From: Ceratorhiza oryzae-sativae | Lineage: Eukaryota > Basidiomycota > Agaricomycetes > Cantharellales > Ceratobasidiaceae | Assembly: GCA_030998015.1 (NCBI GenBank) | Contig: JARWMV010000235.1 | Location: 1,116,001-1,180,000 of the forward strand | Direction: 5' to 3' | DNA: 64,000 nt | Shown: one piece after another, positions 28,032-46,500 of the stretch | Position numbering within the stretch: position 1 is the first letter of the stretch | Layout: the number at the start of each line of letters is the position of its first letter | Made by a program: the position numbers and the translations under genes | The notes under the pieces: generated by a model | Seen by the model: only the letters and a program-made list of their open reading frames with translations | The model's database searches: none | What the model was told of the DNA's origin: nothing

Positions 28032-29721
28032 ATGCTTTCCACAACCGCCTGGTATTTCTTTGCCCATGTTCTACTATACTCTCTATTAGCCCCGGCCAAT
28101 GCTGGTACCATGGAAAAGCGTGGCTCCCAATGCATTTTGGCTCCAGGAGGTGTCGGGATAGACGATTCTGCAGCAGTTCTTAGCGCCTTTGAACAATGTG
28201 GACACAACGGGCATATCGTCTTCCAGAATGCGACCTTTCATATTGAAAAGGTTATGAACACAACTGGATTGGTAAATTGTGTTGTTGACGTTAAGGGAAC
28301 CCTACTAGTAAGTCCTATTCCAAGCCTTTCTCATGATACCGATTGACATTGGTCGGATACAGTGGGGCACAAATATATCCTATTGGCTAAACAACAGTCT
28401 GCCGGTCGGATATCAAAACCAAACATCCGCCTGGTTTTTAGGTGGCACTAATCTGACAATGCGGGGGTTCGGCTATGGGACATTAGACGGAAACGGGCAG
28501 GTGAGTATACATGTCACCCTTGAGCATCTATGGTTACCCCCTTCCGAACACGATAGAAATGGTAGCAATTGGTTTTATACGCAATAATCCACTGACGTGA
28601 CCGACTCATTACTAGGTATGACTATACGAAAGGAGTGTCGAACTTGGCCGGTCGGCCCCACGCCCTTACGATCTGGAATACCAAACAATCCCTATTCCAG
28701 GGACTCAGATTTGTACAGAGTCAGATGTGGTGAGCATCATCGCGAACCGGATTTATCGCCGGCATTGCACGACTGACATTATATTTAGGACAATGACCGT
28801 GAAGGACTCCGAAGATGTACTTCTGGAGAACATCTTCGTCTCAAGTCGTTCAAGTAACTCGTACCCAGCGAGAAATACTGACGGAGCAGATACAATTGCC
28901 TCTAATAGAATCACTTTCCGCGGTTGGGAAATCGACAACGGTGATGATAGCATTGGTGGGACTCAGCTTCTTTGGTAGCATTTACAATTCGCATTAATTA
29001 CGTTGTCAGCTCTCAAGGCCAACTCAACCAACATTGTTATGGAAAACATGGTGTTGCGCGGAGGTTTGGGGATTGCCATCGGATCAATTGGTAGGGATTC
29101 TCTTGACCTGTTGACGATCCACTTACTATCTAGTTCAGGTCAGTACCTTGGCATCAACGAATACGTCGAAAACGTCGTTGCACGGAATATCACATGCCTA
29201 GGCACTCGGTACGCTGGATATATCAAAACATGGACCGGGATTCAACAGGGCTATCCTCCAAATGGAGGGGGCGGCGGAACCGGAGTGGTTCGAAATATTA
29301 GTTAGTCTTCAGGCGTTTCCATGAATGTGTGGCTTACGGTCTCTTCGACAGCATGGAAGGACTTTCATCTCGTTGATGTTTACCAGCAGCCTGTCCAATT
29401 GACACAGTGTACCTCCTTCTCAGGGGCTACAGGTGGTTGCGATACCTCCACCCTCAAGATCTCTGATGTCACTTGGGGTACGTATTTCATCGATATCCCA
29501 TTCGATACGCCTACAGTTTCTACCCGATCCCATGCGCAGGTCCAATGACAGGGAATATAACGTCCAATACCCTCGCACGTCTACAATGTAGCGGCGCCGC
29601 TCCATGCGAGAATGTTCGCTTTGACGAAATGAACAGTGTCAAGGTAAATGGAACCGCAGCACTAATCAAGTGCAGCAACGTTGCCAGTCCGATTGGATTC
29701 AACTGTACCAGCGGCCTGTAA
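28032..29721 (+). CDS. Secreted glycoside hydrolase family 28 (pectinase, exo-polygalacturonase-like)
   Basis: Secreted pectin-degrading enzyme of 416 aa. Exons: 28032-28307, 28363-28500, 28557-28561, 28616-28729, 28789-28955, 29010-29090, 29139-29300, 29352-29477 and 29540-29721; their sum is divisible by three. Signal peptide MLSTTAWYFFAHVLLYSLL. GH28 signatures: GYGTLDGNGQ, ARNTDGAD, NGDDSI and GYIKTW. The usual Gly-His-Gly site reads GLGIAIGSIG, without His. The third exon is only 5 nt (AAATG) between 56-nt and 54-nt introns, and supplies Lys and part of the Trp in NGQKWYD. The C-terminal Cys pairs (QCTSFSG, LQCSGAAPC, KCS) are family-like. A truncated copy lies at 33.6-34.2 kb. Confidence 0.92.
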
Positions 29722-30229
29722 CCATATGTACACTGAATTAAGACACGGAGATCTAAAACATCAATATATTGGTGGCGCCTGGCATACATACATTTGTTTG
29801 ACCATGGCACTACTGGACCTGGACTAACCCCACCAACGAACACCGGCGTTTGACATGTGTGGACCACTAAACTCTGTTTAACGTATCAATTGCCCGCTCG
29901 TATGACATCCCTGCCTCCGAGCCTGCTATCAACTTGGCTCGATGCTGACAAAACGGTCACGATCCGCGAACGTTGCCATAGGGAACGTATTATATAAATG
30001 CTGGCCAATTGCAAATTGGATCTCGCCCCTTAGCCATTCACTGTAACTAGATGTCTCGTCAGCACAATGACCTCATATGTTCTATGTACAGCTTTAAGGC
30101 CCTCTTCGTCAGCTGTGAGGCGTCGGAGAGATTTTTATATCGAGGCCTTCGTTCGACGCACTCTCTCCACCCGCTTCCAGGCCAGATTGCTGGTTTTTTG
30201 AGTACCGTCCTGACTCGACTGGATAGCTC
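29722..30229. repeat. Upstream region of DUF6533-A, duplicated at 34171-34736
   Basis: Intergenic between GH28 and DUF6533-A. Stretches recur in the same order before DUF6533-B, for example GATGTCTCGTCAGCAC here and GGACGTCTCGTCAGCAC there. This marks both as copies of one duplicated unit. Confidence 0.65.
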
Positions 30230-31973
30230 ATGAACTTTCCTCTGGATACCGCCTCTGCTTCGCACGAGTTAGAGCTGGGTGTATTCTACCTGTTTATCAT
30301 CAAGTATGTCAGCCTTTCGCTAATTTGTTCTGTTGTAACGTCGCTAATGTTTTTTTTGGTAAGGAATCTAAGCAGTAAGCCGCCTACGAATAACCTAAAC
30401 CCAGTTGCTGACTCCCCCCGCCAGTTGCGGGCTTCTGTCTCCTCACCTATGACCATGCGTTGACATTCTCCGATGAGGTATGCACCTTTATCTTTCAGGG
30501 CTTAATGCCTCGTCGACACATCACCTAGGTTCGATTAGTTTGGAAACAAAAATGGTCAACGGTGTCCACGGTCTTCATACTAGTAAGGGGATTTACTATC
30601 TCAGTATTCATCCGTATTCTCAGCTATTGCCTTCGTTAGAATCGATATCTTGCTCCCCTTGTTGTTATTTTAGACGTAGGTTTTTATCTATTCTCTGCGT
30701 CGGATTCACCTCTGTGCCAACTAATGTACTCTCGAGTAGCTCTACAATGTGGGGGTATTTCCGAATCGTATCTCACAGTCATTGTAAGCCCACGCTCTGT
30801 TTATGCGGCCTGTACGGCTGTTGGTCCGCAAGCTTGGTTTATCCACGCATACATCTAGTTGCATTACCTGGTACTACGTGGAAACTATTTTAGTCATAGC
30901 ATGCTATGCTCTGGTCCATACAATCGTAGTTCTCAGGGTTAGTTTTGATAACTGACCGTCGTTCAGGTCTTTCGTCTTAATCATTATTTTCGGCTCTAGG
31001 TGTATGCGATCTGGGGTCGACCAAGATGGCTGTTGCTTACTCTTTCAGCTCTATTTACACTATATATAGTGGCAGTAACCGTCGTAAGTTTGGACCTTGA
31101 TAGTATTTCAAAGACTGATATAGACCGGTGCGATATATTCTTGGGATACTACCATGCTTAGATGGTAAATATCTTCCAGGCCAAGGCTTCGTGTAGGTCC
31201 TCTTCCAGTGTCATTTGCTCAGCCGAGAGCTTATTCTGTTCCAGCTACCGTGCATTATGACTCAACCTTGCGGAGTTGCACCATGCGCCCCTTGTCTACG
31301 ACGTATGTTTTCGTAATGATCCACCCATCATAAACTAATCGGATCATTGAACGTAGGTGGGTGTGCGGACTGCCTCTCTTGTTCTTTGAATCTTTTCTAT
31401 TTATCCTCACCTTGGTGAAGATCGTGGAGCACTCGAGGGCGGAGTTTAATACTCCTATCCTGCATATACTTTTTCGTGACGGTGTGGGCGGCCTATTGCC
31501 AATAATAACACCATGCTGATTGTGCTGTTAGGGATAGCGTGTTTCGCCGTAATTGTCTCTTGCACTTTACTTAGTACACTATTATGGCTGGAGGCTGGAT
31601 TAAAGGGGCTCCCAAAGTGGTGAGTCATTTATTTGTGATCTATTTTACTACCCGTTTTTGCCTGACTATACTTTTCACTAGTTTTTTGGTTTCTGTAGCA
31701 GAAACTATGGGTGCGCGGCTTGTGCTCAACCTTAGAAGCTCGCGACGTGAAGAGATCGCGCAACCAGTAGATGAACCTAGGACAGAAAGCACCGCGGGAT
31801 ATGAGCTACGAGCAAGGAACGCGGCTCCCCCATTACCCACGACAGGCTGTTTGACCTTTGGCTCTATCCATGGCGATGGTGGATATCAGGGAGAGGTGTA
31901 TGAATCTGCGCGGGTTCTAGTGGAGTTGAACCAGATGAAGAGCAGTGTCCCAAATGCTAAAGGGTATGTATGA
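30230..31973 (+). CDS. DUF6533-family multi-pass membrane protein, copy A
   Basis: Predicted membrane protein of about 342 aa with roughly seven hydrophobic segments. DUF6533 proteins are expanded in Agaricomycetes; function unknown, topology receptor-like. Thirteen exons join in phase. The N-terminal block has YDHALTFSDE, VRLVWKQKWSTVSTVFIL and NRYLAPLVVILD, the family core. Later come AIWGRPRWLLL, HILFRDG and the conserved cytoplasmic start MGARLVLNLRSSRREE before a hydrophilic tail. Exon 2 is an 11-nt microexon (30364-30374) found at the same place in the other three copies. The ATG is at 30230 and no frame break is seen. It follows the GH28 gene in the same orientation. Confidence 0.88.
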
Positions 31974-33589
31974 ACGAACTTGGTAGCCGTTTTTCCATTT
32001 TGTGCGTTTCATAGTGGTACTGTATGCATTTGCTCGTCTTCACTATCAAGTCAGCTGTAAAAAAATACATAGTATTTCCTATGCCGGAAGTAGAGGCCCG
32101 TTCCCAAGCCAATTGATGTTAAGGGGCCGCACCGAACATGGTACTCACAACTGATTTCATCAGGACAAGCGTCAATCGCCATCGACATTTACATACTTCA
32201 AGAAGCATGTGTAGCTGGCGATCCGTGGCGTTGTTTACCTCGCACACACAAGCCGAGCTTCATGGAAATCTCCGAATAAATTTGACAAATTGCTTATTTG
32301 CGATGGGATGAATTGGATTTGTAGCTTAGTCCCGACCAGACTTCAAAGCGGCACATTCACCTCGTGGGCTTGCTGGCATACACAACAAGCATTGCACCAC
32401 AATCTCAATGAACCGCCAAGAGCATAGTGAAGTTGTGCACTTTGTCCGGAACCGCACGCCTCCTCCATACTCTCAGTTTTTAGCCCCAGTTTAACCGTTT
32501 AGTTGGCCTGGTCGTTCACAATCATACGTCTAGAATTCGATGCATGAAAGTGACTTTGCCAGGCCTGACACATACTCTGTCCATGAGGGTCTAACCCACA
32601 TTCAGGCGCCCGAACTGCAGCCATGAGGCACCCTCCCACGAACCCAGCTGAAATAGCATTTCTGGTAGACTGGCTTCACCAGGGCAGATCCCGCGCTCAT
32701 ATCGGCTCTTAGTTAGAAGCAATACATATGGTTGCCCTCAATTATGAACGATTTTGAGGATTTCGGTACGGTTTCAATAGAGTGCTACCATTCAGCTGAG
32801 CAAAATTGTGAAGAATTGAGTACGCCCTATACGGGACTCATTCCTCCCACAGGTGATATGCTTCCCTTTCGCATTTTGGTATTGCAAGCAAGTTCTAGTG
32901 AACGCCGTGGTGAATGTATTTTGTGGATTCGTGTATACAAGCAACGAGGCTGTTTGTAAGCACGAGAGGACGCATACATAAATAAACATTCTGGGTACAT
33001 AAATGGTGTATGAACTATCCAGTGGGCCACAGACTATGCCTTTAGCGCTTTAGGGCCGAATTCTAAGAATCTGCTGTAGAACAAGGTCATAGAATTATGT
33101 TTTGGGACGAGAACTGGCCGGGTTTCTGCCTAAATTCACCACGCACAAGGTTCGCCAACAATATCGTGTGTTGGTACCTGAAATATACACCCACATATGT
33201 CAGCACTATGCAAAAATTCTAAACTTGTTTGTGCTTCGACTTTGTTCTGGCACTTCTTGCCCCAAGGATTGACCCCACACATTTTATTCTAGTTTGTGGC
33301 GGCTCTGATCTAATACTTTGTTTGATCCTGACGCGAATGCGCTGAGGAGTGTATTCCCCGTAACCGGGCGTGTGGCCAAGGGGATCTATTTGAGCGATAT
33401 GTACACGGAAATGATCGCCGAATTTAGGAGATCATAGTGGTATGCATGACAATTTAATAGCTTCATATGTATGCTGGGTGCTTGCCTCAAAACGCTACTT
33501 GCGTGCAACTAAATATTGAAGTGAAATTCGAAGTAAATGTATCTGTTATGCGCTCAGAGCTCAATTTCAAGCTCCGTAAATTCTACAGG
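31974..33589. other. Long intergenic region after DUF6533-A
   Basis: No gene supported; ORFs are short and mostly lack an ATG. Part of it (about 33165-33290) reappears after DUF6533-B. Confidence 0.5.
33165..33290 (+). repeat. Duplicated downstream segment, copy 1 (copy 2 at 37600-37720)
   Basis: GGTACCTGAAATATACAC followed by TTGTGCTTCGACTTT and GCCCCAAGGATT is matched near 37600-37720 by GGTACCTGAAATACACAG, TTGTGCTTCGACTTT and GCCCCGAGGATT. The block duplication therefore extends past the DUF6533 genes. Confidence 0.7.
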
Positions 33590-34170
33590 CTCACAGTTTC
33601 TACCTCATGGCACATGGATGTCCAATAACAGGAACTCAGCCTTTGGACGCACCACGGAAGAGAGGAGAGAAAAATAAATAAATAAAATGAAATATCGATA
33701 CATGGCCGTAATAAAACCGGGGGGATTAAATACCGTCTGAGGATGCGAAAGGACCGGAGTGGGGGATACTGAGGCACCAGAGGCGCAAGAGAAGGCTCGC
33801 GCGTCAGGTGACAAACTTGACTTAAAGTCGGCGTGGTATGTTGCGCAAGTGAAAAAGAAGAGATGTAGTAAACACTTGTACGTGTGACGAGCAATGGTGG
33901 AGAGGGCGAGAAATCAGCATGCGCGCTAAAGGAACACGTGACGTGAGGGGGCTAAGTCCCAACTACGGGCCTCCGCACACTACGGATCGCACTCTCCTAA
34001 CACAACGCAGCAGTATAACCTCATGCCTCAATTTGGTAGTTCCGCTCCATACGAGAACGTCCACTTCAATCGAGTGAATGGTGTCGGTGTCTTGGAGACC
34101 GGGACTGAGGTGGGGATCGAGTGCAGCGACCTTATCAGCCCGATCGGGTTCAATTCCACCAAGGGATTGC
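33590..34170 (+). pseudogene. C-terminal remnant of a GH28 gene, disrupted by an insert
   Basis: Two blocks match the 3' end of the intact GH28 gene. 33590-33635 matches the last intron acceptor and the start of the last exon; 34009-34170 matches the final exon (PYENVHFNRVNG, IECSDLISPIGFNSTKGL). About 370 bases separate them and have no counterpart in the intact gene. The stop after the terminal GL is also lost (TAA to CAA), and no upstream GH28 exons were found. This is a dead copy left by tandem duplication. Confidence 0.8.
33636..34008. other. About 370-bp insertion in the GH28 remnant
   Basis: Sequence present between the two GH28-like blocks and absent from the intact gene. It contains an AAATAAATAAATAAAAT run. 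I see no terminal inverted repeats, target-site duplication or ORF of a mobile element, so its nature is open. Confidence 0.45.
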
Positions 34171-34736
34171 AACTATATATATACAGAACGAGGATATGGA
34201 GATCTGCAGAATCCAATCTCCAGTAGCGCAGAAAGCGACGGCATTGTATATACATTTGATCAGAGTGCCACTGGACCTGAACTAAACCCACAGGCATGTG
34301 CTCCTATTTGAAAAGTACAAACGACCATGCCGCCTACGAACTGACCGTGTGATTCGATCAAATTCAATGTGCTAGTGGCGTTATAGCGTGGCATCCTCAG
34401 CTAAGAACCCTCAACCAACTCCGTTGGACGTTTACAAAACGGCGACGATCCGTAAATGTTGCTACAGGGAATACTATGGTAGATAAATCCCATCTCGTGA
34501 TCGTTACAGAATCGATCCCTCTCGTGACCCTCTTCGTTTGGCTGGGGTCGGACGTCTCGTCAGCACAGTGGCTTCACGTGTTTTAAGTATAGTTTGGAGG
34601 CCCTCTTTTCCAGGTACCAGGTCTCGGACGGATATATACATTGAGGCCCGCATTCATTTTCTGAGCGGTCTCTCGATAATCCTCCAGGCTTCGCCACTGG
34701 CTTCTTGGGCACTTCCCTGATCCAACTTGGTAACCC

Positions 34737-36477
34737 ATGGTCTCCTCTGAGCATACTGCTTCTGCCTTGCATGATGTAGAGCAGATTGCACTCTACGGGT
34801 TTGTTATCAAGTGTGCCGATCCTGTTCTGCTTTGCCCTCGTAGTTTTCACTAATCCTTCTTCTTCAGGCACCTATCCAGTAAGCGATCTATGGGCAAGTA
34901 ACAACCCGTTGCTGACATCCCCCAGTCGCGAGTTTATGCATTCTCGTCTATGACCATTTGTTGACACTCTCGGATGAGGTATGCACCGTTATCGACTATG
35001 GCTTAATTCCCCGTCAACAATGTACCTAGGTTCGATTGATTTGGAGACAAAAATGGTCTATCGTGTCGACGATCTTCATCCTAGTGAGGAGCGTTGCTGT
35101 TCTGCTATTCGTCTGGATGCTTACATCGTGCTTTCGCCAGAATCGATATATTACCCCTTTCGTTCTTATAGTAGATGTGCGTTTTCCAGCTCTGTGTCGA
35201 ACTCGCATCTGTAGAAACTAACGTATGCTAGAATAGCTCTACAGCGCAGGTGGACTTCCAGATCGGATCCACGTCATTGTAAGCCTGATCTCTGTTTTCC
35301 CTTGCATATGCCACCAGATGGTTGCTGATTTACAAGCTTTGTCACCAACGCATATATCCAGTTGCGTCACCTGGTATTATCTAGAATCGGTTTGGGTCAT
35401 AGGATGTTTCGCCCTGGTCCATGCGCTCGTCGCACTAAGGGTTAGCCTTTACAGTCTAGTTGTCGTTTTAAGTGTTTGGTATTAAACATGAGGTTTGACT
35501 CTAGGTGCATGTAATTTGGGGCCGACCAAAATGGCTGTCAATCACTCTTTCGATATTATTTATCCTTATGTTATGACATCTAGTACGGTAAGTTTGAATC
35601 TTGGTAGTACTACAAGAGCTAATGGACATTCCTGCCGCTCCTTTGCCTGAAATACTGCGATACTTAGATATTATATACCTTTCAAATCAAAGCCTCGCGT
35701 AGGTCCATGTCTGATGTTGTGCCCCGGCCATGTGTTCATTCTGTTCCCAGCTACCTTGCAGTACAATCCAACCTTTAGGAGTTGCTCTGTGCGCCTCTCA
35801 CCTTTCACGTACGTTTTAACAATGCTCTGCTCACCATATAGCTAATTACACCATTGAGTATAGGTGGACATGTGGGATGCCTACCCTGGTGTTTGAAACA
35901 TTGTATTTATCCTAACGTTCATAAAGCAAGAGAACACTCAAAGACCCAATACAATACCCCCATCCTACATATACTCTATCGTGATGGTGGGCACGGCTCA
36001 GTAGAAACTAACGCCATACTAATTCACGACACTAGGGATGCTGTATTTCGCCGCAGTCTTCTCTTGCGGTTTACTGAGCACACTGTTATGGATGATCCCG
36101 ACATTGGCGGTGCTCCCAAAATAGTGAGCCACTGATACGTGTTCTGTTTCGATTGTCTGCTTTGCCTGACTCCGTGATTGTCCAGCTTCGTGCTTTCTAT
36201 CGTGCCGACTATGGGTGCGCGCCTTGTGCTCAACCTTAGAAGCTCGCGACGCGAAGACATCATACTATCGATGAATGAACCTAGGACGGAAAGCGTAGGA
36301 GAATACGAGCTAAAAACGAGAAGCGCAGCTCCTCCACCGCCAGGGTCAGGACGTTCAACCTTTGGGTCTATCCAAGGGGAAAGTAAAGACGAGGAAGCAG
36401 TATGTAGGTCTAGCCAAATTCTAGTAGAGTTGAACCGCATGAAGAGCGACCGACTAGGCGCCAATGCTCATGTGTAA
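34737..36477 (+). pseudogene. DUF6533-family membrane protein, copy B, with several frame breaks
   Basis: Same exon plan as copy A, including the 11-nt microexon (34868-34878). The ATG at 34737 gives MVSSEHTASALHDVEQ; core blocks YDHLLTLSDE, VRLIWRQKWSIVSTIFIL and NRYITPFVLIVD are present and the tail (MGARLVLNLRSSRREDI) is intact to 36477. Lesions: a 2-base deletion near 35270 relative to A, and apparent 1-base losses near 35572, 35906 and 35923. The single-base losses sit in short homopolymers and could be errors; the 2-base deletion does not fit that pattern. Called a probable pseudogene, with a functional gene in a poor assembly as the alternative. Confidence 0.65.
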
Positions 36478-37599
36478 CTTTGATGTATTCTACTCAATTT
36501 CGTACGTCTCATAGCTGGAATGCATCAAATTGTTCTTTTTGCCGCCAAATTGTTTATAATTGTGCATGCTGTTCAATATCTCCACGAGTGACTGGGGATT
36601 AAATTAATGCATCCGTGTCAAACAGGATGACTCGGGACCGATTTCCTCGATTAAATGTCAATCATGATCGACTCCATGCCTTTTTTTTCAAAATCATATA
36701 AATGGTGACGGAAATATTGTTTTTACGAGTGACGTTGTATCAGTTCGGGATTTGCCTGTCCAAGCTAACCTTGACGCAAATGACCGAGCGTGCCCGATTG
36801 GTTATTCATTTGCAATAGGACTGATCGAACTTTAGACGAGCATATTTCGCTTGCAATACAACGTGACGTTGTGGGGCACTATTTCAGCTGGCTGAAGAGG
36901 TCCCGAGGAATCCGTTGACATTGCGGGGAACCGCATATTGTCTCGTCCTCACAGCCCCCGGTTCCGACTTACTCACATTCTGCCAGTGTTACTTGGCTTG
37001 CTTGCTTCTGTTCGCACGTCCGGAATTTGCCATATGCGGGAGTCTAACGCACGCTGGCCGTGAGCGCTGGTCCTACAATCAGTCGCCCAAATTTCGATTA
37101 TGAGTATCCGCTACGAACTCCGCCAAAATAGCATCGCAGTTGCTCCGACAGAACTATTTCTCAAAGCTAATCGAGCTGGATCAAGGGGGAAACGTATCGT
37201 CAAGGACTTCACTGTTCACTATTTCAAAGAGACTTGTGGCTCACGACCTATGATAGTCTACGCTCTGTGATTTCAGTGATCCGAGGGGACCACATGTGTA
37301 GACATACCTTGGCGTTCGCGGCGAGTGATGACAAACCTGATTCCAGCGCGCCAATGCTTCATGCCGTCTGGGAAGTGGCGTGATCCATTCCATCGACCAT
37401 CTTCGTGCTGGAAATTCACCTTGCTACCAAGATGCTCCCATCGACCTTCGATTACAACTAATATAGGACCTCCTGGCAAATATTCTGGCAGGCGCCGGTG
37501 TGAATTTGCAATAAGTGGGTTTTACAAACCGGTGCTTTTGAATCAACGCGAGTCTGGGTACCGCTTAAACAGATTGTCCGCCAGATTGGCTTCTAAGCG

Positions 37600-37720
37600 C
37601 AGTGTATCGGTACCTGAAATACACAGCCGCGTATAACGTACTACGCAAGCATTCTAGATTTCTTTGTGCTTCGACTTTATGTGTACTAGTTGCCCCGAGG
37701 ATTAGCCTTGTGCATTTAGA
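37600..37720 (+). repeat. Duplicated downstream segment, copy 2
   Basis: Matches 33165-33290; see that entry. The spacing between the copies, about 4.4 kb, is close to the spacing between DUF6533-A and B. Confidence 0.7.
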
Positions 37721-37849
37721 TATCGTTTCGCAGCTCCAGTTCAGGAGTCTGTTTCATCTTGACGCAGAGGCGGGTCGTTATAGCGCAACCTCGATAGCCG
37801 TTGTTTAGTTCTTCAGCCTTGTTCCGATTGCACCGTATGGCAAAGGACT

Positions 37850-38065
37850 GTGAGGACTGCTCAGAGTTCACGTTCAGCCTCTACTATCGGAAGTAAAGAA
37901 TCAGAGTCACTGAAGTCGAGTTCTACGGATGCGACAGTGACTCGTATTCTCCAGATTCCTAATCAAATTCTTTGGGAGGTTATCATTTCCCATTTTGACG
38001 TGGTCCTACCGGTTGATATCGTGGAACGCAGTCTGTTGTTTCGTTCTCGCTTTCCGCGCTCGTGA
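37850..38065 (+). pseudogene. Possible F-box-like gene fragment
   Basis: A 71-codon open frame without an in-frame ATG contains RILQIPNQILWEVIISHFD, which resembles an F-box helix (compare LPxEILxEIxSHF). No leucine-rich continuation was found. It may be a remnant or a chance ORF. Confidence 0.25.
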
Positions 38066-38874
38066 GTGATCGATCGATGTGGCGTTAGATTTACGGTGTG
38101 CTCTGGACGGGTCATCCTTGGTCCTGGCATTCGAGGCTAGCACATTCTGTCAAAGCACGGGAGCATTTCAAGGCTGAATCACGCGTATCATTTAGCCCAG
38201 AAAATAAGGCACGCTTGCCTTTACCAACCAAAGGGTCGTGTGCCTCATCGTGCTGCCTGTCTTCCCCGCCGACGACATTGGCACTGACGAGTCGCCTCTA
38301 TGCATCTTATCTCCGTGTCCGACACCGGGCTTGCCAGAAGCCTGACCCATCAGGTTCGTGCTAGCTGTCGCGACAGCTATATGTGGGGTTGCAGCTTGTG
38401 TCAAATCTTCAAGGTTCACATCGCGAAGATGTCTTACCGGCGACCAGACATGCAATAGGGATGGGCTCGGGTTGTATGCATGGAGCCGCTTCCGGGAAGC
38501 TCGTCAATCCGAGCCGGAGAAACATTTGAAGATGCGGGGAGACATGTGTCCGCCGATGGACGTGAACGGCACTAGGGCTCTTTGTTCCGCTTTTTTGTCG
38601 GGGGCATTTGTAAATATATTTGGTGTGGTTCTGCCCGGCGCTTGGGATGTTCGGTGGAGAGGAAACTTCGGACCTGGACCACGTGGCGAACCAGAGGACT
38701 GCCCCTTGCGCGAGCACACGGTCGACGCCGAGATCGGCCTTCTCCAGCACTCGGCAACCGCATACATAAGCGATTTCTAATGCGAGAATACGTTTATTCC
38801 GCCGTATATTGCTACCCTGTTCGAGCGGCAGTCGCGATTTTTCGACCCCCTCTCGTCGCGCCAGTTCTGCCACG

Positions 38875-40588
38875 ATGGACCCCGCCACGGTAGCTGCAGC
38901 AGTCCACCACCTACAGACGGCGTTGCTCAACGTGTTTGCGAGCAAGTGAGTCGTGGTATGCGTTTGGTTTGATATTGGCTGAGACTTCTGTTGTTAGATG
39001 CCTAGCCGGTGAGCCTTGTCGATCGCTTCGTTCAGGACCCATTGCTCAATCATGCACTAGTCGCTGGTGTCTCTATATTAGTATACGACCACATAATGAC
39101 GTTCCCGGAAGAGGTATGCTGCTAGTGTGGTCGTTGGATGCGCTCGGCTAACTCATCAACCAGGTCGAACTCATATGGAAACAAAAATGGTCGCTTGTCT
39201 CCACGCTGTTTGTCCTCGTAAGTACTCATCACCTATCTCAATGGCAAACACGCTGATGGGCTTGTTCGTCCGACAGAACAGATATATCACACCCCTGGTC
39301 CTCGTCGTAGACGTAAGCCCAGCCGTCCCAACCACCCCAATTCCACTCTAATCTCATGGAAATTAGGTGATTGACAAAGGCGGGCTTGCAACCTCTCTCC
39401 CTCGTTCCTTGTAAGTTCTCATTAACTCGGCAACATCATAGCCGATAAAAGTTCCAGAACTGGCCTGACCCATTGAATATAGCTGTGTCAACTGGTATTT
39501 CGCCGAGGCGGCCTGGAACTTGGTAGCCTTTGGCATGATTCACGCGCTTGTGGCATTACGCGTACGCTAAACTCGTTTCTCTTCTTGGCACACCCCACTC
39601 ATTCAAAAATTCCGGGGGATAGGTTCGCGCTATTTGGGGCAGGCCTCGCTGGCTCACACTCCTTCTCGCCATCCTTTATGTCTTGTATTTTGTGACAACG
39701 GCAGTGGTAAGCATCTCGATTCAATTCTATGAACATCTCAATACTTCATTGTGTGTAGATAGCTTTCAAGTACCAAGCAGAATTTGCTGGTAAGGGGCTC
39801 CAAACGTATTATGGATCATCTGAGACCCATGCACGTCTTCCTGCTCGCAGATACCGTAGAATTCAACCAAATATTCCACATTTGCTTTGCAGCAATCTCG
39901 CCTTACATGTAAGCACAACCGCCTCCCTCTTGAAGTAAACCCTGGAAATATGAAACTAATTAACGATAGATGGACATGCTGGCTCCCCGCCCTCATGTTC
40001 GAATTTGTCGTATTTATCCTGACAGTGATCAAGGCATTGAACACTCGAAAAACAAAGTTAACACCCATGTGATATATGTCCTCTACCGAGATGGTGCGTC
40101 CACTCAACCAGTCAACGTCAAGATCCGGCCTGATGACCAAGCGCATACAGGCATTATGTATTTCGTGATCATCTGTTGCTGTAGCATTTTCAACATGATG
40201 GTTTGGCTCCTCGCTCCTCCAACCCTCGTCGCTCTTTCCAAATAGTACGTTTGACTACCCGTTCACACTCGGACAATCTTTGACTAACCACTATGATCTC
40301 AGCTTTGTCCTGTGTATCGTCCCCACCATGGGAGCCAGGCTCGTTCTTAACCTTCGCGGTTCCCGCCGAGAAGATCTCATGCCAACCGGGGCCTCCACAT
40401 CAGACCATGCGGCGTACGAACTGCAGGCCAAGGGCATCTACAATTCCTCACAGGGCCGAGTCGTCTTTATATCCCGACAAGACGGCGCAATAAGCGCGCA
40501 GGATCGGATTCAGCTGAATCAGATGCGGAGTGCGACAGACTATCAACGTCTGAAGGAAAAAAAGAATTCATGGTCGAGTAATGTCTGA
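38875..40588 (+). CDS. DUF6533-family multi-pass membrane protein, copy C
   Basis: Starts at 38875 (MDPATVAAAVHHLQTALLN). First exons: 38875-38945, 38998-39008 (11 nt), 39061-39113, 39164-39217, 39277-39312, 39367-39410, 39483-39561, 39623-39706, 39759-39789 and 39851-39908. Core motifs: VYDHIMTFPEE, VELIWKQKWSLVSTLFVL, NRYITPLVLVVD, AIWGRPRWLTLLLAILY, HVIYVLYRDG and MGARLVLNLRGSRRED. Exon lengths equal those of copies A and B, but the sequence is clearly more diverged, so it is an older duplicate. One base appears missing near 40036 (KAL versus EHSKNKVNTH). Confidence 0.85.
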
Positions 40589-40922
40589 TTGGAGGGTGTT
40601 TTTTTTTTCTTCTCCTTGTGGTTGCGCATTTTTATACTAGACTGGTCGCTGGTCGTTGGGGTTCTTTTCGTATGTATAATTATTATGGATGGCATTGTTG
40701 TAGTTTCCTGCATACAAATCACAAATCACACTCAAGTACAACATATAAAGATACAATCACTCCACCAAGAAGCCAAGAAAAACAAGCAGGGGTACAGAAC
40801 ACCGAATCAAACCCAAGCATTAAAATATCAGAACCCGAACATCCACATCCACATCACGCACATGGGACAGAAGCATCCAACAGAAAGTTTGGTCCCCTGT
40901 CTTCCAGCCCACCGCCGCCCAC
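40589..40922. other. Convergent intergenic region, DUF6533 C/D
   Basis: 3' flanks of two convergent genes. A poly-T tract lies near 40602-40612. No gene seen. Confidence 0.5.
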
Positions 40923-42718
40923 TCAGACGCTACTGAACCGTGATTTGGTAGGCGATAATTCGATCTGGAATTCTTCGGCGTGTGTGTGCGAACTCGAAAC
41001 GTACACTACTGGATCCCGACAACTCCGAAGGTTGAGGACCAGTCGGGATATCATGACGTTCACGATGGCCAGACTAAAGCTGCGGAGAACGACGGCCGTT
41101 AGAACGTGATTCACAAGCTGGGCACGAGACGATCATTATGTAACAGGGACAACGCGGGAGGGATTCCGGGGGGAGGGGGGTTACGAACGACCAAGGCGGA
41201 GGTCTCGAGGGGTAAACGGAGACCAGAAAAGCTCAGACTTACTACTTTGCCAAGGCAACAAGAGATGGGGGTGCGATAATCCAGACGATCATATTGAAGC
41301 AAGAGCAGACTGGTGGAAACGTTAAACACAGAAGACGGAAGATGATAAAGGGTGTATTGCTTACAGACGATGATGGCGAAATGGAGCGCTCCTGTTGATG
41401 GTAAAAGTCCGGTCAGATGGGTTGTTTGCGCGGTTCTGTTGAGGGGTGCGTACCATCACGGAACAACACGTATAGAAGAGGTGTTTCGCTGCTCAGTTGT
41501 CTTGTTCGGGATATTTGAATCCATGAGAGGACGAAGAGCACGCCTTCGAGTATGATGGGTGCGACCCAGCATGCCCAACTGAATTACGAAGCGACTTTAA
41601 GTTTCCGAATATGATTTAGGGGGCTGGCTCGTGCTTACAGGTAATGAGAAATCTGTGAGGGGTATTAGATCATCAATCGGAAGCAGAGAAATTAATGCTT
41701 ACCGTGAGATAGCATAACTTAAGCAAAGGATCATAATGTACGGTGTCTATATGCGCGTGATTCAGTGCCCGTTTAGGATAAACCGGATGTGAGATGAACT
41801 CACAGGCTTTGGAATGCGCGGCGCTGAACAATACCTAACACCCAAAAGTCAGCCGACCAGTAGAATCACAATCGTTATCCAAAACTCACCGAGCATGAGA
41901 TGGAAAAATAGGCCAACCAGAGCGATGTTAGAAGGATGATGATCCACCGTGGGCGGCCCCAAATAGCTATCACCTGATCGAGAAAGACACATGTGAATCA
42001 ACGGGTAGTACGGTATATGGCGCCGCGCTGTTACTGACCCGCATGATAACGAGGATGTGGATTATGGCGAATGAGCAGATGTACCATGCTGCTTCGGTGT
42101 AGTACCAGGTTATGCAGCTACGAATCGGGTCGGGGAGGTTGTAAGCGAAGGAGACCTGGGTCGGGCTGGGTGTACTCACAATCTCTGGCTAATGTAGTCT
42201 GATATTCCCCCCTTGTCGTAGAGCTAAAGGCAGATGAGTAAACATCCCTTTGCCAGGAAAGAGCAGGCTCACATCAATGGCCAGTACTACCGGAGTAATG
42301 TATCGATTCTGCCCGCGAAGTGAGCCATTGATTCTCACGCCTAGGCACGCTTCATTCAGACTTACGATGAAGAACAAGAAGGAAACCAGTGATCTGTCCG
42401 CTTTCCAAATGTACTTGATCTTCAGGTCGAATGACGGATTAGATTAGCTTGGAAATGCTATAATATCCCTTACCTCGTCTGCGAACGTCAAGACGTGGTC
42501 ATAGATGAGAACAGTAAAGCCGACGACTGTTGTAGGGAACGAAAAGAAAGTGTCGGTCAGGTAAAAGGGAGCCAAGAAAAGCAGCCAGTGACATGCCTCC
42601 CATCATACTGAATTTTGCCCGTTTTTAGCACATCACATCCTATGATATCTAACAGTACTCACATGCTCACGCGAATGTTGTGCACCGACGTGTCGAGTTC
42701 TGCAATCGGTAGCGACAT
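40923..42718 (-). CDS. DUF6533-family multi-pass membrane protein, copy D
   Basis: Inverted relative to the other three copies. The ATG at 42718 gives MSLPIAELDTSVHNIRVS. Exon 2 is an 11-nt microexon (42607-42597) whose donor must be GC (GCATGT); exon 3 is 42526-42474. Core: YDHVLTFADE, IKYIWKADRSLVSFLFFI, NRYITPVVLAID, then AIWGRPRWIIILL and VLFRDG; the tail is short (MISRLVLNLRSC). The 58-nt exon of copies A-C is split here into 44 + 14 nt by an extra intron, and a later exon is also split (around IIVCSCFNMIVW), pointing to intron gains. No definite frame break. Confidence 0.82.
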
Positions 42719-43509
42719 TTTTCAGTAACCGAAATGAACGACGTGGGGCAAGGATGATTAGTGGAGGCCCAAAGTACGTGGCCAGAAGATCATAGAATCA
42801 AGCAAGATCGAGGAGAGGATCGCCAAAGCCTGTGGAGAAACGTGGCCCTCCCTCTTAAACCAAGCCCTTTAATGAAACCCCAAGCTTCCTTGCTTAATCG
42901 TCAGCTGTCAAGTCGCAGCAGATCGGAATTCGGGTGGGTGCTTCCAGAATATAGCCGGCTCGGGCGGAGGACGAAATAAACGTGCTCAGGTGCCACTTTT
43001 GAAGAGCACGAAACATGAGATCGACGTTGATTGCAGTCCAGAATCTGCTCGGATCTGTCTGCGTCTGGTATGGGCAGTGGTAACAGACGTGTGAAATATC
43101 CCGAGATGAAATCAGTGGCGCAGAGATCATTCCAGGTTTTTGCGCCATGTGCATCCAGATAACGTCCAGGTTGTCTTGGAAGGTACGCATAAGGCCAGGT
43201 GTTTTGTGGCCGGAATACATCGATAGCTCGACGAGGGCAGGATGGGCCGGGAAATCATCTAGCCGTATGATACTTGACATCAATCGAACCCCTGCTGGTC
43301 GACACATTCACATGGAGTGAAATCACCGACATAGGCGCTTCGGCATCTGCCGCCACCAGGTTCACTGCTATATGTGTATGGATTTTATTTCAGCAAAGCG
43401 TATCTAAATATTCTGCAAACAAAGGCAAAAAAAAACATTTTTTAGTCTACCACTGAAAATCTTTTTCAGCCACAAAGGCGCCACCACCAAACTATCATCA
43501 GCCTAGAAC
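42719..43509. other. Intergenic between DUF6533-D and glucosidase II
   Basis: DUF6533-D promoter on the left and glucosidase II 3' flank on the right. ORFs in between lack recognisable features. Confidence 0.45.
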
Positions 43510-46500
43510 TCAAAACTCTACTAGGAAGCCCCACTTCTTTGATACGAACAATCCCGGGTTCTTGATGACCAAAACACTCGCTCTGCCATCCTTCTTGCCA
43601 TCAGCCGACTCGCCTGCTTCCCATGTAAACTTGAGTTCGATCCCGTCGTTCCGAATAGTCTTTGGCGCCTTCTTCAACCCCAAAACGACGATCCGCTCGA
43701 TCCGTACGTGGGCCATCTCTCGTGCAAACACGTTATCTGCGTCGTATTTGTCCAAAACAATTTGATCGACTGCTCGATCGAGGTTATCCGCCGCGAGATC
43801 ATCGCTTGCGATTACGAGACCCTCCTTGGCCGTCTCCGCATAGAACTGACGCCAGATGAAGTGACCCTTTTCGTGCGCGTAACTATCTCCATCATCGAGA
43901 TAGATTTCTCCAGCCGCGGCTCCTTCCTTGTCCAGCGCCACGAGCAAGGTAAACGGATCATGTTTCATAAGCGGCGAGGAGCGACGGGGTCGTTCACGCG
44001 TAGCGATCAAGGAGCCGCCTCGGACCAGGATCGGAATTTTTTCGAGTGGCGCAGGGACGGTAACGTTTCGTCCAGGCTCGGAGCCGTGATAGAGGTCATA
44101 ATTTTTATAGTCGTAGTAAGGCTGTGTGGTGGCCGAAAATTCAGTTAACCGTCGCGAGAAGATGGCAGTACACATACCTGGGCTTCGGCCAGATACACCT
44201 CGGTCTTTTCGACGTCGGCTTCAGTGACGGGCTTGATCAACAGCCCAGAATTACCGATGTAATACTGATCGTCGATCGCGAATCCTTGTTTGTCTTTCGG
44301 GAACATCACGTAGTGTGGTCTATAGTACTTGTAAGCGTACTAGAAGAATAGTTTCTGATCGCCATCGCTTACCGAAGAACGGGCAACCCAGTAACACTTG
44401 TTTCCCTGAATGCAGTGTACCACACTGGCAGCATCGAGTAGCGCAACCTCAGGGTATCTCGGACCATTCCACGATAAGGCTCGTCCAACAAGTAGGGCTC
44501 GCGACGCTTGGTGTCGATGTGCGCATGGGCGCGGAAGAACGGTGCGAAAGCTCCGACTTGGTACCAGCGGACGAGCATATCAGGAGGCGGGTTACCGAAG
44601 AAGCCACCAACATCAGCTAAAGCATCGGTCGCATCGTCAATATGTGCAACTAAACACCAGCCGGTTCGATGACGTACCTCCAGCAAAACTCATCCCAGCA
44701 ATTCCGTTCGCAAGGACCATCTTGACGCCGACAGCCATGTGCTCCCATGTACCCATATTGTCGCCCGTCCACATGGCGCCATGACGTTGCGAGCCGGCAA
44801 AGAATGAACGTGTGAGCACGAACGGTCGTTTTGGCGGGTCTGAGCGGGCCTTGAGCGCTTGAGCGGTGATGTTGTGCTGTGAGGAGTTGGTCCAGGCACC
44901 ACGAAAGTGGAGGGCGGGAGTTGAGCAAGAGGCAAGAGCGATGAAGAAAACGCCACACAGGCACGCCGAGGATGCGCACAAGTGATCGACGAGGCACCAA
45001 GAGCGAACACGTGTATGGAGCGGAACATGGAGCCAACCGACCGGGTAAAAGCCGATGCGATCGATAAGAAGGATGAAACGGAGCATCAACCGGCGGGAGT
45101 AGTGGTATAGGCCGACGGAAAGTGCAGAAAAGAAGACCCAAGTCAGCTATTTTACCTTTGAGCCAGGGAAGAGTGGGAACGTACATAGAGCATGCCGTTG
45201 ATATTATGGACGTCCCGGTGTTCCCATCCACCATAGTGCACGTTGTCCTTTTGCATTGTGATCTCCGGGCCGTTGAACACCGACGGCTATAAAACAATCA
45301 CGCCTTGTCAGCAGATACGCTCCCGAAGAATAAAAAAAAAGAACATGCCTCGTTCATGTCATTCCAAATATGAATGCCCTCTGAGCTGTCCCTCCATGCC
45401 CAGTCGAGCGCCTTTTCTTCGGCGTCCCCAATCGTCTTGGGCTTATCAAACTTGTACAAGCCTTTCCACCATTCCCAGCTGCCGGGATCGAAAAAGTCGA
45501 CCCAAGCGCTGGAGCCTGACCAACACCAGCCCTCAAATTCTTCCTTTCCTCCAGGCCGCTTGACGAGGACATTGAGCTCTTTGGCAGCCTTGTAGGCTGG
45601 ATAGGAGTCTGTGCGTTTGAGATGGGGGTCGACGATGACTACCATCTGCCATGCACAAGAGTCGGCGCGAAGAAACCGAATAAAAGCGAGAGAGACGTAC
45701 CTTTCGTCCGACAGCCATGACGTCCTTGGTCATGTCCAACGGATCCGGGAAATTCTTGTCGTCCCACATAAAATACATGTGATCTTTTGCGTACTCGATA
45801 TCAAGCCAGAAAACGTCGACGGGCATATCTGCTTCGTCGAATCGCTTTTGAACGCTGCGTACGTCATCCGAGGATATATAATTCCATCGGCATTGGTGAT
45901 GTCCGAGTGCCCATAGTGCAGGGAGAACAGGGTTACCGGTCAACCGGGCGTATTGTGAGAATACGTCTGCAGGTGCAGGGCCGGGGAGAATGAACACGTC
46001 GAGAACACCCGATTCGGCGACCCAGTGCGTATTGGTCCCAGCCTGGTCGGGTGTTCGGGCGATGTCGATCCAGGTTTCCGACCCGACGGCGACAAAGACA
46101 CCAAGGTGGACTTTTCGTTGTGCGCGTGCAAGAGGGGGATGGAGCCATAGAGCGACATGGTGGAGGATGCTTCATACTCGAAGACGTCGAGGTTGTAGAG
46201 CCTATATGGATCCGAAAAGAATGGGTTTTCGCCAGATGTGGTGGGTAGGTTGAGGGGGGCTGCGTGTTGAGGGATTCCGTAGACATGCGAGTGGGAAGGG
46301 AAATTGATGTCCAAGGAGAATGACTCGGGACCTGTCGACGAAAGTCAGAATAGGCGGCAGTGGTGAAAGAGGGAAGTACCTTTTGGCTTGGAGTCGGTCC
46401 AAGAACCAAACGTTTCCTCCCAGTATGCATCCTCGGTTTCACCCTCGAACCAGGCATTGGGCTTGACCTCAGGCTCCTTGATGACGGCTTGCTCGCCCTC

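What the first reader, a model, noticed from the sequence alone, without database searches (positions are those of the whole stretch)
30364..42607. An 11-nt microexon is conserved at the same position in all four DUF6533 paralogs
Exon 2 is exactly 11 nt in copy A (30364-30374), B (34868-34878), C (38998-39008) and D (42607-42597). Each lies between a phase-2 donor and a phase-1 exon end and encodes about four residues at the start of the first family block. The microexon sequence varies (GAATCTAAGCA, GCACCTATCCA, ATGCCTAGCCG, TATGATGGGAG) while its length does not, so it is maintained across old and recent duplicates. Nearly all other exon lengths are also conserved.
Basis: seen in the sequence. 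Interest (0 to 1): 0.8.

Follow-up and report, generated by a model that had tools for sequence, protein, structure and literature searches.

The report
Tiny exons in fungal receptor-like genes
A family of receptor-shaped membrane protein genes in a mushroom-group fungus is cut by introns into extremely small coding pieces, one of 11 letters in the genes examined here and, in a number of their relatives, probably one of only two letters, which gene-finding software seems to stumble over.

Summary
An 11-nt coding exon lies at the stated coordinates in all four DUF6533 genes, inside transmembrane helix 1; leaving it out shifts the frame. Copy D uses a GC donor and has transcript-like support: database protein P0011 equals its 15-exon model at 293 of 293 residues, including the 11-nt exon and a second one of 14 nt. 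The exon occurs in nine distinct genes of this genome; L036 has it fused to the next exon (64 = 11 + 53). Constant length is what shared intron positions in a gap-free helix predict, so it is no evidence of a switch. Copies B and C are broken, which weakens "maintained".

The larger result lies in the relatives: still smaller exons at shared positions (14, 12, 7, 5 nt) and a 2-nt exon just before an invariant cysteine codon. Three alignment runs agree on it in seven distinct genes; the most focused run has it in 22 of 43 loci. An ortholog's probable cDNA contig supports it. Other members keep only one of the two flanking introns, which looks like intron sliding. Annotated orthologs of one such gene are mostly distorted or truncated there. 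Ordinary intron-defined, constitutive splicing is the best explanation: a new member of a known kind.

The parts
30230..31973 (+). Copy A, 13 exons, intact 342-aa DUF6533 protein
   Evidence: PF20151 60.8 bits, cut-off 24.1
30364..30374 (+). Copy A 11-nt exon 2; introns 30304-30363 (GTATGT..AAG) and 30375-30424 (GTAAGC..CAG)
34737..36477 (+). Copy B, broken: in-frame TGA in exon 8, exon 11 123 nt; end is the stop reached by the last exon's frame
34868..34878 (+). Copy B 11-nt exon 2; introns 34811-34867 and 34879-34925
38875..40588 (+). Copy C, exon 11 (39970-40093) is 124 nt where A has 125: frameshift; end is the stop reached by the last exon's frame
38998..39008 (+). Copy C 11-nt exon 2; introns 38946-38997 and 39009-39060
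40923..42718 (-). Copy D, 15 exons, intact 293-aa protein identical to P0011
42597..42607 (-). Copy D 11-nt exon 2; introns 42662-42608 (GTGAGT..CAG) and 42596-42527 (GCATGT..CAG, GC donor)
41639..41652 (-). Copy D second microexon, 14 nt

Best explanation
The 11-nt exon is an ordinary, always-included coding exon of an intron-dense family of seven-helix membrane proteins (DUF6533). Each flanking intron is about 50-70 nt with its own splice sites, so the spliceosome recognises the introns, not the exon; the two introns are probably removed one after the other, which avoids crowding over 11 nt (inferred). Inclusion is enforced because 11 is not a multiple of 3: skipping shifts the frame. Length stays at 11 because both intron positions are inherited and the residues lie inside transmembrane helix 1, where the aligned relatives show no gaps. 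The same logic covers the family's 14-, 12-, 7-, 5- and 2-nt exons. Shown: positions, frames, sites, recurrence in the family, exact or gap-free agreement with database proteins from short contigs. Inferred: that those contigs are mRNA, the order of splicing, decay of skipped mRNA, constancy of inclusion.
For: P0011 (source 'lgn', 2,311-bp contig) equals the D splice model at 293/293 residues, 15 exons. P0040 (lgn, 975-bp contig; the L039 gene spans 1,986 bp with introns) aligns without a gap over 302 residues to the L039 model with exons of 11, 12, 7, 5 and 14 nt. 11-nt exon in 10 of 43 loci examined, nine distinct genes, and in the top-scoring model of 8 of those 10. L036 encodes the same residues in one 64-nt exon. 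Skipping gives an early stop in A, B and D and a shifted frame in C. The 19 of 21 aligned database relatives that reach this region have the residues without indels. Microexon residues 19-23 lie inside helix 5-45 of the model.
Against: No RNA-seq reads were available. The origin of 'lgn' contigs is not documented in the tool; 2,311 bp could also hold D's 1.8-kb genomic copy, so for D the cDNA reading rests on the exact match, GC donor included. In A and L033 the top-scoring local alignment begins inside or just before the microexon (7 and 19 nt) and leaves the first intron untested; the best model with exon 2 scores 760 against 763 in A and 1142 against 1241 in L033. For D, 35 of 50 queries gave no 11-nt exon; best such score 674, against 1485 with P0011. 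B and C are broken, so their microexons need not be in use.
Confidence: 0.9

Rival explanations
1. The microexon is a regulated switch: it is skipped in some conditions to shut the gene off through a frameshift and mRNA decay.
For: Skipping shifts the frame in all four copies, with an early stop in A, B and D. A condition-dependent microexon exists in Trichoderma Xlr2 (PMC11121469, passages read).
Against: None of the 19 database relatives that reach this region in the alignment shows a skipped form (P0012 and P0013 start later). Relatives have many other tiny exons at once, which suggests plain intron density. The length is not a multiple of 3, unlike most microexons according to PMC11121469.
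Confidence: 0.06
2. Chance or modelling artefact: the real mRNA uses one long intron or a longer exon 2.
For: AG-N11-GT arises in 6-18% of shuffled stretches for the ten loci, so a single gene proves little; in L035 a poor model (score 70) also showed an 11-nt exon and was dropped.
Against: Joining exon 1 straight to exon 3 breaks the frame; same place in nine genes; P0011 and P0040 matches; 64-nt fused form in L036.
Confidence: 0.02
3. Intron 2 was gained after L036 split off, rather than lost in L036, so the 11-nt exon is younger than it looks (a rival on its age only).
For: Holding 20 rows (11-nt genes and their relatives, without L036/P0034) together is not rejected (p-AU 0.114; group named after a first tree was seen).
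Against: The best tree puts L036/P0034 with the L037/L039/L042 group (94/93), which favours one loss; deep forks are weak and long branches move.
Confidence: 0.3

Closest known systems
Single-nucleotide exon of CYP621A in Fusarium (PMC12940212; passages read)
   Same: Ultra-short exon found by frame logic in an interval about twice the usual intron length, with an intronless relative and transcript support.
   Different: One nucleotide in one P450 gene of an ascomycete genus; here 11-nt and 2-nt exons recur across paralogs of a basidiomycete membrane family, some of which lack one flanking intron.
Microexons in Phanerochaete chrysosporium P450 genes (PMC1184071; passages read)
   Same: Basidiomycete gene family with many exons coding 2-10 residues and 45-55-bp introns; shortest exon 6 bp.
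   Different: The passages read do not report a tiny exon fixed in place and length across paralogs, nor a 2-nt exon.
Trichoderma Xlr2 microexon (PMC11121469; passages read)
   Same: Conserved fungal microexon missed in the consensus gene model, supported by comparison between species.
   Different: Condition-dependent; nothing here shows regulation.
Arabidopsis APC11 1-nt exon (PMC4674806) and plant microexon catalogue MEPDB (PMC12409088); both only starts of abstracts in the listing
   Same: Ultra-short exons in nuclear genes.
   Different: Plants; other genes.
snb1 'Snowball' of Coprinopsis cinerea (PMC10949477; section 8 and one passage read)
   Same: DUF6533, seven predicted helices with the N-terminus outside.
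   Different: Its exon structure was not examined here; orthology to the window genes not shown.

Membership tests
DUF6533 (PF20151) | Profile match above the curated cut-off | tested here: met
   A: 60.8 bits, cut-off 24.1; D = P0011 is listed with PF20151
Ultra-short coding exon (microexon) | Internal exon of 15 nt or less with splice sites on both sides | tested here: met
   D's donor is GC
Ultra-short coding exon (microexon) | Included in mature mRNA | tested here: inconclusive
   D: 293/293 match of P0011; ortholog of L039: P0040 gapless. Strong, but the mRNA origin of the contigs is inferred, and A, B, C were not tested
Switch-like regulated microexon | Alternative inclusion between conditions | not testable with these tools
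   no RNA-seq reads
Switch-like regulated microexon | Length a multiple of 3, so that both forms stay in frame (usual, per PMC11121469) | tested here: not met
   11 nt; skipping shifts the frame
GPCR-like fold (closest: class D receptor Ste2) | Seven helices, overall fold | tested here: met
Class D GPCR (Ste2 family) | Sequence membership | tested here: not met
   Pfam scan of A at E 0.1 gives only DUF6533
Class D GPCR (Ste2 family) | G-protein coupling, ligand | not testable with these tools
   needs experiments

The most novel reading that the evidence does not exclude
The DUF6533 family carries an ancestral 2-nucleotide exon: two introns, at phase 0 and phase 2 of one codon just before the invariant cysteine at the start of helix 3, leave only two bases between them. 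It survives in at least seven, possibly about twenty, paralogs here; other paralogs lost the upstream intron, the downstream one, or both, so that what looks like two-base intron sliding between paralogs is differential loss around a 2-nt exon. Together with the 11-nt exon and others of 5-14 nt, one gene family would then be a natural series for testing how small an exon the spliceosome can handle. (Probability lowered from 0.8 to 0.75 when the recount showed that three runs agree on seven distinct genes, not twenty.)
Probability: 0.75. Interest if true: 0.7.

Novelty: new member of a known kind. Interest (0 to 1): 0.52.

Why it matters
Constitutive exons this small test the lower limit of exon recognition by the spliceosome. 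A family in which the same tiny exon is present, half-fused or fully fused in different paralogs lets one ask how such exons arise and disappear, and whether apparent intron sliding is really differential loss. There is a practical side too: of eleven annotated Rhizoctonia and Ceratobasidium proteins closest to one 2-nt gene (P0022, P0024-P0033), one reads through the place as predicted and ten are distorted there or begin near or after it, so proteins of this family may be widely mis-annotated.

Tried and rejected
Rfam scan of 29000-44000 at gathering scores: no match. Paper searches, in this library only: 2-nt exon wordings 0 papers; microexons with Agaricus bisporus 0; micro-exon with mushroom and intron 2, none on fungi by title; micro-exon with Basidiomycota 2, on fungal mitochondrial genomes and a yeast lipase family by title, not opened; microexons with fungi and exon length 2; micro exons with fungi and introns 3; microexon with basidiomycete 9 (the Rhizoctonia solani AG8 paper only names an aligner setting); one search was too broad to use.

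Foldseek's own order led with class C and class A GPCRs; only the second aligner put Ste2 first. A shared fold shows no function.

Errors of mine: the tree and the first tally used models in unsorted order; and the sorted tally replace them. In one search copy B's start was off by one base; redone. Iterating with our own models as queries let errors spread between paralogs. The stretches came from whichever query's model was met first, and its 2-nt rows were filtered for a following Cys codon, so those probabilities are only a guide; L016, L017, L027, L028 and L035 have high chance rates there, and a 2-nt candidate is also listed in A at a wrong place.

Full report
WHAT WAS CHECKED. The four 11-nt segments are exactly where the finding puts them. 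In each gene exon 1 ends at phase 2, the 11-nt exon ends at phase 1 and exon 3 is 53 nt. Copy A is a 13-exon gene (30230-31973) with an open frame of 342 residues and a clear DUF6533 match (60.8 bits). Copy D is a 15-exon gene; its donor after the microexon is GC. B and C are damaged: B has an in-frame stop in exon 8 and a 123-nt exon 11; C's exon 11 is 124 nt where A has 125. So 'four paralogs' means two intact genes and two broken ones.

IS IT SPLICED IN? P0011, from an unnamed 2,311-bp contig (source 'lgn'), equals D at 293 of 293 residues over 15 exons, among them the 11-nt exon with the GC donor and a 14-nt exon at 41652-41639. I take the contig to be assembled RNA; its length alone would also fit genomic DNA (D spans 1,793 bp). 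P0040 is firmer on that point: its 975-bp contig is half the span of the L039 gene with introns (1,986 bp), and it aligns without a gap over 302 residues to the L039 model with exons of 11, 12, 7, 5 and 14 nt. P0043 (1,789-bp contig; L037 spans 2,099 bp) agrees for L037, with some gaps. Whether the genes behind P0040 and P0043 have the same introns is not known.

HOW WIDE IS IT? The genome has 44 DUF6533 matches. I fetched 38 loci and examined 43 entries including the four window copies; the second match in L018 was left out. The 11-nt exon followed by the 53-nt exon is in 10 of 43: A, B, C, D, L031, L033, L037, L039, L040, L042. L039/L040 are 99.3% alike, so nine distinct genes. It is in the top-scoring model of 8 of the 10; in A and L033 the top local alignment begins inside or just before it. 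Per locus it is recovered by 15 of 50 (D) to 36 of 49 (L037) queries. A poor L035 model (score 70) that also showed 11 + 53 was dropped. L036 holds the same residues in a 64-nt exon, 11 + 53, with only the first intron, which has a GC donor. In the alignment the 19 of 21 database relatives that reach the region have no indel there. The tree favours loss of intron 2 in L036 (94/93) but does not reject a single later gain (p-AU 0.114).

WHY THE LENGTH IS CONSTANT. The exon gives three whole codons and parts of two (residues 19-23 of P0011), inside helix 5-45 of a confident seven-helix model (pLDDT 87.2). With both intron positions inherited and no gaps in the helix, 11 nt is the expected length. 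Skipping gives a frameshift in all four copies, with an early stop in A, B and D. Flanking introns in the window are 47-70 nt; across 171 introns of 12 models the median is 55 nt, 162 are 75 nt or shorter, 164 start GT and 7 GC. Such short introns are normally recognised as units (established knowledge of fungal splicing, recalled), so an 11-nt exon between them is no great obstacle. Order of removal is unknown.

THE SMALLER EXONS. Other tiny exons recur at shared positions: 12 nt (Asn-Arg-Tyr-Leu), 7 nt and 5 nt in L037, L039/L040 and L042, and 14 nt in L039, L042 and D (in L042 the 5-nt exon depends on the query). The most striking is a 2-nt exon: the first two bases of the codon before the cysteine that is invariant among 30 aligned proteins (C86 of P0011). 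Three runs differ in how many genes show it in the top-scoring model. Full-length, database and early models as queries (tally): 14 of 43 loci followed by a Cys codon (L025 doubtful), and 4 two-base exons elsewhere. Iterated own models, higher intron cost (tally): 11 of 43 loci, one of them with a second, spurious one, and 1 elsewhere. Fixed queries cut around the cysteine: 22 of 43, namely L009a, L009b, L010, L014, L015, L017-L021, L023-L025, L027, L028, L032, L034, L038, L041, L043-L045; L009a's model is poor, and L009b and L015 lead their rivals by only 2-4 points. All three agree on L014, L023, L032, L038, L041, L043, L044 and L045: seven distinct genes, as L044 is a near copy of L043. L019, L026, L028 and L034 have it in two of three runs. 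In one search the downstream intron alone is seen in A, C, D, L031, L033 and L029; the upstream alone in L037, L039, L040 and L042; neither in L036, and in B in a poor model. L012, L016 and L026 have it within 4 points of the best. Six are unclear or not covered: L011, L013, L022, L030, L035, L046.

SUPPORT FOR THE 2-NT EXON. Sites such as tatag[TT]gtgagt (L041), tccag[AT]gtaagc (L043) and aatag[AC]gtatgc (L045) are strong. In the seven agreed genes the two introns plus two bases make 105-123 nt, about twice the usual intron, and a 2-nt candidate with strong sites arises in 0.1-4% of shuffles (L038's own acceptor, AAG, would not pass that rule). P0023 (lgn, 1,476-bp contig; L041 spans 1,649 bp; 68% identical, so another species or gene) reads WLSDKFCEVW straight through where L041 has DK|TT|T TGC. 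P0022 (Ceratobasidium AG-I annotation) reads DKFC too. The lack of 2-nt exon wording in the paper library is weak evidence of novelty; a 2026 paper cites 2-5-bp exons in Arabidopsis, Drosophila and humans, and calls its 1-nt Fusarium exon the first for a fungal gene (PMC12940212, passages).

VERDICT. The exon is best read as an ordinary constitutive exon in an intron-dense gene family, not a switch. The 2-nt exon, if RNA confirms it, is the part a specialist would find surprising.

Noticed in passing
L014, L023, L032, L038, L041, L043/L044, L045; likely others: Two-nucleotide exon before the invariant cysteine codon: seven distinct genes in all three runs, 22 of 43 loci in the most focused run.
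   Followed up: yes
window 41639-41652 (minus): Second microexon (14 nt) in copy D, part of the exact match to P0011.
   Followed up: yes
window 35505-35588, 35864-35986, 39970-40093: Copies B and C are broken: stop in B exon 8 and 123-nt exon 11; 124-nt exon 11 in C.
   Followed up: partly
proteins P0024-P0033 (R. solani, Ceratobasidium): Annotated relatives of L041 are distorted at the 2-nt exon or begin near or after it.
   Followed up: partly
P0003, P0004 (Ceratobasidium AG-Ba): DUF6533 membrane proteins named 'dephospho-CoA kinase' in the source record, apparently a naming error.
   Followed up: no
P0011 model: Predicted fold closest to the class D GPCR Ste2 by the second aligner; the Pfam scan of copy A gives no receptor family.
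   Followed up: partly
L039/L040, L043/L044, L012/L016, L013/L015: Near-identical pairs on different contigs (93-99%), perhaps two haplotypes kept apart in the assembly.
   Followed up: no
L045, L043: First intron seems to lie one base away from that of the 11-nt genes (63-nt exon against 64 in L036).
   Followed up: no
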